In this document: positions 3,753 through 6,700 of the stretch, piece after piece
How positions within the stretch are numbered: the first letter of the stretch is position 1
How the letters are laid out: every line of letters starts with the position of its first letter
NCBI GenBank assembly: GCA_030620925.1
Contig: JAUXIQ010000059.1
Location: forward strand, 1-8,897
DNA from: JAUXIQ01 sp030620925 [NCBI: Nitrospinota bacterium]
GTDB lineage: Bacteria > JAUXIQ01
Length of the DNA stretch: 8,897 nt
Direction: 5' to 3'
Program-made: the position numbers and the translations under genes
Notes under the pieces: model-generated
Told to the model about the DNA's origin: nothing
The model's database searches: none
The model's input: the letters and a program-made list of their open reading frames with translations, nothing else

Positions 3753-6700
3753 ATGAATAAGCCAAAGGTTTCTTTTGGCAGTGATAACAGTCCGAGGAGA
3801 GATTTCTCTCGTATACCGGCGATAGTCGATATCCCCAACCTCATAGAAGTGCAGAAAAACTCTTACGAAGCTTTTCTGCAGAGCGAGAAGAAGCCGAATG
3901 AGAGGGATGAAGCCGGGTTGGAAAACGTGTTTCAAAGCGTTTTCCCTATTACGGATTATAACGAGACGGCCTCACTGGAGTACGTGGGCTATGAGGTGGG
4001 CATCTGGGAGTGCGACTGCGGGGAATACAAGGAGCTGGGCGGGCCCGGAATAGCTTGCGAAGTCTGCAGGAAAGAGGTCGTATACAAGCAGAAGTACGAC
4101 GTCGATGAGTGCAGGCAGAAGGGGCTCACCTACGGCGACCCATTGAGGGTGATGGTCAGGCTTATAGTGTTTGAGGAAAACGAAGGTGAAGGCCCTAAAG
4201 ACATAAAAGATATAAAGGAGCACAAGGTTTATCTGGGGGAAATCCCATTCATGACCGTAAAGGGTACTTTCATCATCAACGGCACCGAGAGAGTTATCGT
4301 GAGCCAGATGCATCGCTCTCCGGGGGTTTTCTTCAGCCAGGAGAAAGGGAAGAGCCACCATACCGGGAGATTTGTCTTCTCTTCCAGGCTGATACCCTAC
4401 AGGGGCTCGTGGGTGGATTTCGAGTTCGATACCAAGGACGTACTTCACGTGCGAATAGACAGGAGGCGTAAATTCCCGGCCACAATCCTGCTTAAAGCGT
4501 ACGGTCTGACTTCCACCCAGATCCTCGAAACCTTTTACGACTGCCAGGAGATAAAGTATCACCCCAAAAAAAAGGAATTCTCTTTAAGAATATCAGATCT
4601 GGCACAGAAGCAGAAAGTCCTCAGCGAGTCCAAGGAGGAGAGGGCCAGGGCCCGCGCCGCGGAGAGCACCCTGGATCAGCTTCAGAAGCTCAGGTCGCAG
4701 GGTTTGAGGGAACTTACGGTAAAGGAAGAAGAGCTTCATGGGAAAATATTGGCGGAAGATGTCGTAGATGAGTCCACCGGGGAGGTAATCCTGGAAGCCA
4801 ACGCGGAGATCACTGCCGATAAAATAGATGAAATGAAGGAGAAGGGTATAAAGGGAATTAACATCCTGGATTTGGATATGGCCAATATGGATACCTCCAT
4901 GAGAGACACCCTGCTCCAGGATAAAACCCTCAACCAGGAAGAGGCATTGACAGAAATCTATAAACGCCTCAGGCCGGGCGACCTGCCCACCGTCGAAACA
5001 GCCAGAACCCTTTTCATCAACATGTTCAACAATCCTAAACGATACGATCTCTCCAGGATAGGAAGGCTCAAGCTGAACCGCAAGCTGGGACTCGATTTCC
5101 CCTTGGAAGAAAGGTACCTCAGGGTTGAAGACGTTGCCGGGGTGATGAAATACCTCGTCATGTTGAGACAGGGCCAGGGCCAGGTGGATGATATAGATCA
5201 CCTGGGCAACCGCAGGGTAAGGTCCGTAGGGGAACTTCTGGAGAATCAGTTCAGAGTGGGTATGATGAGGATGGAGAGGGCTATCAAAGAACGCATGAGC
5301 ATACAGAACCTGGACACGGCCGTCCCTCACGACCTCATCAACTCTAAACCGGTGACTGCGGCTGTAAAGGAATTTTTCGGCAGCAGCCAGCTATCCCAGT
5401 TCATGGACCAGACGAACCCCCTCTCCGAGATCACGCACAAACGGAGGCTGAGCGCCCTGGGGCCCGGAGGGTTGACCAGGGAGAGGGCGGGCTTCGAAGT
5501 GAGGGACGTACACCCCAGCCACTACGGCCGAATATGCCCCATCGAGACGCCCGAGGGACCCAACATAGGGCTAATCTCCTCTCTGAGCACATACGCCCGT
5601 GTAAACGAGTTCGGGTTCATCGAATCGCCCTACCGCAAAGTCAGCGCCGGGAAAGTCTCCGAAGAGGTCGACTTCCTTTCCGCAGACGAGGAGGTTCAGT
5701 ACGTCATAGCTCAGGCCAATGCTCCCGTGGACGAGAAGGGGAAGCTTTCCGCCGAGCTCATATCCTGCCGAAAGGGCGGGGATTTCATCATGGCGCCCCC
5801 CCAGGAAGTGAATTACATGGACATTTCCCCCAAGCAGCTTGTAAGCGTGTCGGCTTCGCTGATCCCATTTCTGGAGCACGACGACGCCAACCGCGCACTC
5901 ATGGGTTCAAATATGCAGCGGCAGGCGGTCCCCCTGCTCAGGACGGAGTCACCCCTGGTAGGGACGGGCATGGAATACGTCGCCGCTCGCGACTCGGGTG
6001 CGACCGTGCTGGCTGAAAACGATGGCGAGGTGATATTCGTGGATGCCACCAGGATAGTGGTCCGTACGCAGAAGAAGAAGGAGAATGCTGACGGATATTC
6101 GGGGGTGGACATCTATCCTCTCACCAAGTATCAGCGCTCCAACCAGAATACCAGCGTAAACCAGAAGCCGGTGGTCCAGGTGGGGCAAAAGGTCAAAAAA
6201 GGGCAGGTAGTGGCAGATGGTCCCGCCACCGAACATGGCGAACTGGCCCTTGGCAGGAACGTACTGGTGGCCTTCATGCCCTGGTTGGGTTATAACTTCG
6301 AGGACGCAGTGGTTATAAGCGAGAAAGTCGTCAAAGAGGATATTTATACCTCTATCCACATACAGGAGTTCGAGGTAGAGGCCAGAGACACGAAACAAGG
6401 CAAGGAAGAGATCACCAGGGATATCCCAAACGTCGGAGAAGATGCCCTGAAGAACCTGGATGAGAGCGGGATTATCAGGATGGGCGCCAACGTGAACCCG
6501 GGAGATATCCTGGTGGGTAAAGTGACCCCTAAAGGCGAGACACAGTTGAGCCCTGAGGAGAAGCTGCTCAAGGCCATTTTTGGGGATAAGGCGGGTGACG
6601 TGAGAGATTCCTCCCTCACTCTTCCACCCGGAGTGGAAGGGGTGGTTATGGACGTTAAGGTCTTTAACAGGAGAGGCGTGGATAGGGATTCCAGGACTCA

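What the first reader, a model, noticed from the sequence alone, without database searches (positions are those of the whole stretch)
4005..4088. RNA polymerase beta subunit carries a second copy of the beta' zinc ribbon
Seen: RpoB residues 85-112 have C-x-C-x12-C-x2-C, with W-E-C-D-C-G-E-Y-K at the start and a C-E-V-C pair. RpoC encodes W-E-C-N-C-G-K-Y-K and C-E-K-C at the same spacing, and 13 of 26 aligned residues are identical. Known: in E. coli the beta' zinc-binding domain uses C70, C72, C85 and C88; the matching stretch of E. coli beta is short, with no cysteine quartet. Inference: the beta' zinc ribbon, or a close relative, was duplicated into the beta protrusion domain, giving the enzyme an extra zinc site. 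It may contact DNA, sigma or a factor near the upstream fork. I cannot tell whether this is a trait of a whole phylum.
Basis: partly seen in the sequence, partly recalled or inferred. Interest (0 to 1): 0.75.

Follow-up and report, generated by a model that had tools for sequence, protein, structure and literature searches.

The report
Extra zinc ribbon in polymerase beta
[quoted passage not shown] coli enzyme lacks.

Summary
RpoB residues 85-112 (window 4005-4088) form a C-x-C-x12-C-x2-C ribbon inserted where other beta subunits have about 3 residues. Its likeness to the beta' zinc-binding domain is well above chance: profile-profile score 55.8, against 26.6 +/- 4.5 when Cys, W and G columns are held fixed and the rest shuffled (0 of 120 as high). 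Against all PDB sequences, the 60 shown of 117 matches lie at the beta'/gamma zinc site. It is not one genome's quirk: matches in 61 of 61 Aquificota genomes, nearly all of several unnamed phyla, and a longer two-ribbon form in Acidobacteriota. Insert length is bimodal in 142 RpoBs, and the RpoB core tree is compatible with one origin (AU p 0.56). Three phylum-level lineages lost the Cys quartet, by at least two losses, yet kept the W..EY..LGG frame. Best reading: an ancient copy of the beta' ribbon core, now a structural or docking module on the protrusion near the upstream fork. Zinc, structure and function are untested. I found no description in the library searched; two older surveys could not be read.

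The parts
3753..7808 (+). rpoB, RNA polymerase beta subunit, 1351 aa
   Evidence: ORF; six Pfam Rpb2 domains over their cut-offs
4005..4088 (+). inserted zinc-ribbon-like segment, RpoB residues 85-112, Cys 87, 89, 102, 105
3969..4004 (+). conserved stretch before the insert ([12 protein letters not shown], RpoB 73-84)
   Evidence: alignments; strand 73-82 in the model
4089..4130 (+). conserved stretch after the insert ([14 protein letters not shown], RpoB 113-126), where ribbon-less beta subunits rejoin
4212..4220 (+). IKE motif (RpoB 154-156) on the same beta1 domain; counterpart of the Mfd-RID contact of E. coli beta 117-119 (that role is recalled, not tested)
   Evidence: sequence
7919..8897 (+). 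rpoC 5' part, beta' subunit, runs off the window
   Evidence: PF04997
8129..8212 (+). beta' zinc-binding domain core [28 protein letters not shown] (RpoC 71-98), the proposed paralogue

Best explanation
The segment is a small Cys4 ribbon inserted into the beta1/protrusion domain of RNA polymerase beta. It is homologous to the core of the beta' N-terminal zinc-binding domain and most likely an ancient copy of it. It is a stable, apparently vertically inherited part of beta in several phyla, and the core tree is compatible with a single gain. In the window's organism it should fold around one zinc ion (inferred). It most likely acts as a structural or docking extension of the protrusion on the upstream side of the enzyme, the domain to which the RIDs of CarD and Mfd bind, rather than as a DNA or RNA binder (inferred). 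In three phylum-level lineages, by at least two losses, the zinc ligands are gone but the rest of the module is kept. Shown here: the sequence, its site, its similarity and its distribution. Inferred: zinc, duplication, location near the fork, and function.
For: Profile-profile comparison of 18 distinct short-type beta ribbons with all 103 beta' stretches held (45 distinct): probability 98.2, score 55.8; shuffles with Cys columns fixed average 14.0 (max 35.0), with Cys, W and G fixed 26.6 (max 36.4), 0 of 120 as high in either. 41 distinct ribbons of the other, mostly Acidobacteria, type: 41.3, against 24.3 (max 38.4) with Cys, W and G fixed, 0 of 120. The beta-ribbon profile against 177,635 PDB sequences: the 60 shown of 117 matches all lie at the beta' or gamma site. 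Insert columns hold 3 residues in 105 of 107 ribbon-less RpoBs (4 and 6 in the other two) and 30-68 in 35 of 35 ribbon-bearing ones. With the insert columns removed, a 64-row tree needs 3 changes (shuffled mean 21), and a tree holding the 35 ribbon rows together is no worse (AU p 0.56). Genomes with a match: 61/61, 54/60, 23/24 and 9/9 of four phyla. In a 161-residue AlphaFold2 fragment the ribbon is the best-predicted part (block pLDDT 81-84), with the same strands as in the longer model. Ligand-less versions keep W, EY and LGG. Net charge +0.6 (14 ribbons), -1.75 (4 ligand-less), against +3.0 for beta' (103). The genome has two CarD/TRCF RID domains, in frames of 158 and 1148 aa.
Against: The shared core is only about 28 residues, and C, W and G columns carry about half of the score. 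The sequences around the ribbon are beta's own, not those of beta'. A 142-row FastTree tree needs 5 changes, so several gains or losses are possible. Both models are of middling overall confidence (mean pLDDT 69.8 and 59.0; in the longer one the ribbon blocks are 62-81), I had no coordinates, and the distance between the cysteines could not be measured. No zinc or functional data exist. Placement near the fork rests on passages about the beta1-lobe in other bacteria (PMC4593161), not on a model of this enzyme.
Confidence: 0.6

Rival explanations
1. Convergence: an unrelated short ribbon arose in beta and came to resemble the beta' ribbon because both are compact Cys4 knuckles.
For: Short domain; the single-pair similarity is only moderate once Cys, W and G are fixed (885 of 200,000 shuffles reach it), and fixing those columns keeps about half of the profile score.
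Against: The profile score still exceeds every one of 120 shuffles with Cys, W and G fixed, for both ribbon types; among the 60 PDB matches shown no other zinc-ribbon family appears.
Confidence: 0.15
2. Nucleic-acid contact: the ribbon is a second DNA- or RNA-binding element at the upstream fork.
For: Homology to the beta' domain; the beta1-lobe lies near the upstream part of the bubble (PMC4593161, passages read); two Aquificota ribbons are +3 and +4.
Against: The window's ribbon is -2 and four ligand-less forms average -1.75; the invariant positions are W, L and G rather than basic residues.
Confidence: 0.2
3. Several independent insertions or horizontal transfers put the ribbon into different phyla.
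For: Patchy distribution (25 genomes of the 290 read and found to have it, 104 read and lacking it); 3 to 5 changes on unconstrained trees.
Against: Same insertion point and similar start of the insert in the rows read; the AU test does not reject one clade (p 0.56); matches in nearly all genomes sampled of several phyla.
Confidence: 0.3
4. Ordinary, already catalogued length insert of beta with no special meaning.
For: Lineage-specific inserts in beta are well known (PMC2939025, PMC11515920); two older surveys (Lane and Darst 2010; Iyer and others 2004; recalled, not seen) may list it.
Against: The main text of a 2024 survey of beta and beta' insert domains uses neither 'zinc' nor 'ribbon'; none of the titles and abstract starts listed by eight paper searches describes it (three of these lists were capped).
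Confidence: 0.3

Closest known systems
beta' (RpoC) N-terminal zinc-binding domain
   Same: W-E-C-x-C-G core, C-x-C-x12-C-x2-C spacing, G-V-V-C..C...V end; profile probability 98.2
   Different: Sits in beta, not beta'; lacks the FGP..D lead-in and the RRERMGHI follow-on; about neutral rather than basic; patchy; can lose its Cys
Lineage-specific inserts of bacterial beta (betai4, betai9, betai11; BEAN domains)
   Same: A discrete insert at a fixed site, shared by sets of phyla
   Different: 28 residues with a Cys quartet in the protrusion; the 2024 survey ascribes most beta inserts to BEAN domains, does not mention zinc in its main text, and names five insertion sites by its own domain codes, which I could not match to this site
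Zinc ribbons that lose their ligands (C+ and C- ribosomal proteins; recalled)
   Same: Ligand loss with the domain retained
   Different: Here in an RNA polymerase core subunit, in three phylum-level lineages, by at least two losses

Membership tests
beta' N-terminal zinc-binding domain (core ribbon) | C-x-C-x12-C-x2-C with W-E-C-x-C-G | tested here: met
   (51 of 103 beta' stretches have Y in the place of W)
beta' N-terminal zinc-binding domain (core ribbon) | Profile similarity above chance and specific to this family | tested here: met
beta' N-terminal zinc-binding domain (core ribbon) | Conserved flanks FGP..D and RRERMGHI, position in beta' N-terminus | tested here: not met
   flanks are those of beta; so related to the core ribbon only, not a beta' domain
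beta' N-terminal zinc-binding domain (core ribbon) | Binds zinc | not testable with these tools
   no metal data
beta' N-terminal zinc-binding domain (core ribbon) | Four Cys converge in the fold | tested here: inconclusive
   models of middling confidence, no coordinates given
Lineage-specific insert of bacterial beta | Discrete insert at one site, absent from other lineages | tested here: met
   bimodal length, 142 RpoBs
BEAN domain (CATH 3.90.105.10) | Two antiparallel bracket-like elements | not tested
   fold of the insert not compared with BEAN
Pfam zinc-ribbon families | Match over the curated cut-off | tested here: not met
   window segment 3978-4130 alone: only PF01780 at E 1.3, below cut-off

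The most novel reading that the evidence does not exclude
The zinc ribbon of beta' was copied once into beta in the common ancestor of a multi-phylum group (Tectomicrobia, Aquificota, Acidobacteriota and others), giving these polymerases a paired set of ribbons. There it became a built-in part of the upstream-fork machinery that works with, or in the place of, factors such as CarD, Mfd or sigma, and later dispensed with zinc more than once.
Probability: 0.35. Interest if true: 0.78.

Novelty: new variant of a known kind. Interest (0 to 1): 0.62.

Why it matters
The solved RNA polymerases all come from lineages without this module (a beta-ribbon profile found none in the PDB). If whole phyla, among them the Aquificota and the Acidobacteriota, carry a second beta'-like ribbon on the protrusion, then promoter opening and factor docking there may differ from the textbook enzyme. 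The insert would also be a discrete marker of deep bacterial kinship, and the loss of its zinc ligands in some lineages is a natural experiment on what the metal is for.

Tried and rejected
Recent gene conversion between rpoB and rpoC: rejected, since own and foreign beta' are equally similar (14 genomes; one search had 10 of these 14, its patterns having missed four). Chance from Cys spacing: rejected. The first profile test used only beta' rows with WEC, 50 of the 101 then held, which favours the match; it was repeated with all 103 rows, and the score fell from 57.3 to 55.8. Trait of one MAG or an assembly error: rejected by its presence across phyla, including single-contig genomes. Structural proof: not reached. 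Searches with the two models returned other beta chains and say nothing about the ribbon itself; the ribbon was not folded alone. Pfam gave no call for the ribbon. Second rpoB in the genome: none seen, 1 match to PF04563. I first wrote of three or more independent zinc losses: the four ligand-less rows of the tree form one group (support 80), and G482 was not in the tree, so I claim at least two. Regular expressions missed sequences: of 22 loci only 9 ribbons were printed; of 13 loci. L220 (G179) was fetched but its insert was not printed. The counts 61/61, 54/60, 23/24, 9/9, 15/18 and 2/5 are genomes with a profile match under the threshold of that call (1e-5 for the first, where every best E is 2e-16 or lower; 1e-8 for the rest), not sequences read. 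Acidobacteriota: matches mix rpoB and rpoC, so no such count is given; the 30 loci read are the 30 best-scoring of 119 genomes. Dropped: L265 (truncated), one missing stretch (G253) and one short stretch not fetched (G074). 161 of the 290 genomes were not read at the site.

Full report
CHECK. The window holds tRNA-Trp, secE, nusG, rplK, rplA, rplJ, rplL, rpoB and the start of rpoC (names other than rpoB and rpoC by reading the translations). The comparison with RpoC gives 13 identities in 28 positions; with Cys fixed, 39 of 200,000 shuffles do as well, and with W and G fixed too, 885. A tblastn with the RpoB N-terminus hit the window's own rpoC at the ribbon (E 7.2e-4), and also rpoC-sized frames of two other genomes, G002 and G005.

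WHAT IT IS. Beta subunits without the ribbon mostly read Y-x-x-G-E-P-K-Y-x-x-x-E-C or close to it; most of those with it read Y-E-I-G-x-W-x-C-x-C-G ... C-x-x-C ... K-Y-x-x-x-E-C. The insert columns hold 3 residues in 105 of 107 ribbon-less RpoBs (4 and 6 in the other two) and 30 to 68 in 35 of 35 others. For 51 PDB beta sequences the best-matching stretch begins at residue 111 or later, and a beta-ribbon profile found no PDB chain better than beta' at E 6.8e-6, so no solved structure seems to hold it. Two AlphaFold2 models of different length give the same strands (84-86, 93-94, 101, 108, 110-112). In the shorter one the ribbon is the best-predicted part (block pLDDT 81-84 against 32-67 elsewhere). 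Overall confidence is modest, and the Cys distances could not be measured.

RELATION TO BETA'. Eighteen distinct short-type ribbons against 103 beta' stretches (45 distinct): probability 98.2, score 55.8. Shuffles of the beta' columns average 14.0 (max 35.0) with Cys fixed and 26.6 (max 36.4) with Cys, W and G fixed; 0 of 120 reach the score in either. Forty-one distinct ribbons of the other type, mostly from Acidobacteriota: 41.3, shuffles at most 29.1 and 38.4 (a first run on beta' rows with W only gave 57.3 and 42.0). A profile of five beta ribbons against all PDB sequences gives 117 matches at E up to 1; the 60 shown are beta' or gamma chains (a few carry the label 'beta' but match at the beta' site), best E 6.8e-6, in E. 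coli at beta' 66-94. In 290 bacterial genomes 278 have a match at E 0.01; by my count 8 have three matches and the rest one or two. In the rows listed, the matches in columns about 8-39 behave as rpoC: 29 of 29 such loci examined read as a beta' domain, and all 78 stretches fetched 2.7-5.3 kb upstream of such matches held rpoB. A ribbon is no closer to its own genome's beta' than to the others' (11.3 against 11.4 identities of 28, 14 genomes), so any duplication is old.

DISTRIBUTION. In the 290-genome set (mostly 1 or 2 genomes per family) 18 have a full-length match in rpoB at E under 1e-18: 14 with four Cys and 4 without the quartet. Seven more carry other or longer inserts that I read (G002, G033, G076, G082, G187, G219, G224). 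104 genomes were read and lack it; 161 were not read. Genomes with a match, by phylum: G010's 61 of 61, taken as Aquificota because the G010 NusG best matches PDB 1m1g over its full length (that 1m1g is Aquifex aeolicus NusG with an inserted domain is recalled); G005's 54 of 60; G062's 23 of 24; G021's 9 of 9; G137's 15 of 18, of which the 12 printed and 2 read before all lack the quartet; G094's 2 of 5, both without the quartet; G031, which carries the same sequence as the named Candidatus Tectomicrobia contig L032, 1 of 1. In the named collection 27 of the 80 loci kept have the insert: L032, and 26 of the Acidobacteria type (25 so titled, one titled Acidimicrobiia). The other 53 are titled as Alphaproteobacteria or members of them, one only as Proteobacteria, and lack it. 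These 80 were picked by similarity to the window. G224's phylum is taken as Acidobacteriota because its RpoB groups with named ones (support 96); the 30 best loci of its 119 genomes all show the W-x-C-x-C knuckle, one of them (L189) printed only in part.

HISTORY. With the insert columns removed, a 64-row RpoB tree needs 3 changes of the ribbon label (shuffled mean 21). A tree with all 35 ribbon rows held together is 2.67 log units better than the one found by the free quick search, AU p 0.56. A 142-row FastTree tree needs 5 changes. One gain is therefore compatible but not shown.

ZINC LOSS. G094 and G233 read WESKEGEYKGLGGSGV; G137's phylum has forms such as WESKGNEYPGLGGPGVKDDDGVEV; G482, in G062's phylum, where the other 8 printed have the quartet, reads WESSTGEYLDLGGPGVKDPSNGK. 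All lose the quartet and keep W, EY and LGG. On the tree the rows of the first two lineages form one group (support 80), and G482 was not in the tree, so this is at least two losses, not necessarily three. The module seems to do something that survives without the metal.

MECHANISM. The insert lies in the domain called beta1-lobe or protrusion, which binds the RID of CarD and, by its shared fold, that of Mfd, and lies near the upstream part of the bubble (PMC4593161, passages read). The window genome has two such RID domains, in frames of 158 aa (CarD-like) and 1148 aa (Mfd-like) (names from size and family). The ribbon is not basic: mean net charge +0.6 (14), ligand-less -1.75 (4), beta' +3.0 (103), though Aquificota ribbons are +3 and +4. 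I therefore favour a structural or protein-docking role over nucleic-acid binding; this is inference.

LITERATURE. PMC11515920 (2024 survey of insert domains; abstract, sections 2.2 and 2.6, and term search read) has no 'zinc' or 'ribbon' in its main text. PMC2939025, PMC3417386 and PMC3444138 (passages read) describe other RpoB inserts and do not contain 'zinc'. Eight searches of the held library listed nothing that describes it by title or start of abstract (the lists of 24, 54 and 74 were capped). Lane and Darst 2010 and Iyer and others 2004 are recalled and were not seen; they may list the insert.

Noticed in passing
L034, L039, L170-L199 and other Acidobacteria-type loci: In the rows aligned, the insert at the same site is 64-66 residues with 8 Cys, so two ribbons; in L034 the later Cys pairs score best with generic zinc-ribbon families. 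One may be nested in the other.
   Followed up: partly
L022 (G002), L130 (G076), L131 (G219), L218 (G187): Another long multi-Cys form (60-68 residues, 8-9 Cys) starting W-x-C-x-C-G-K, in genomes of four families.
   Followed up: partly
L005 and L118 (G005, G153): RpoB carries a further insert of about 50 residues just before the IKE-like motif (VREVKEQ), that is beside the presumed RID-binding strand.
   Followed up: no
L161 2615-3352 (-): NusG of the Aquificota genome matches 1m1g over its full length, including a stretch that in this genome holds a CEC...C...C cluster.
   Followed up: no
L045: Record titled Acidimicrobiia bacterium carries an Acidobacteria-type RpoB insert; probably misnamed or misbinned.
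   Followed up: no
G064, G113, G206, G217, G251: rpoC-type matches lie in open frames of 2465-2691 aa, the size of fused rpoBC genes.
   Followed up: no
L155, L160: In some Aquificota families the first knuckle is C-x2-C in place of C-x-C, and the insert is 4 residues longer.
   Followed up: no
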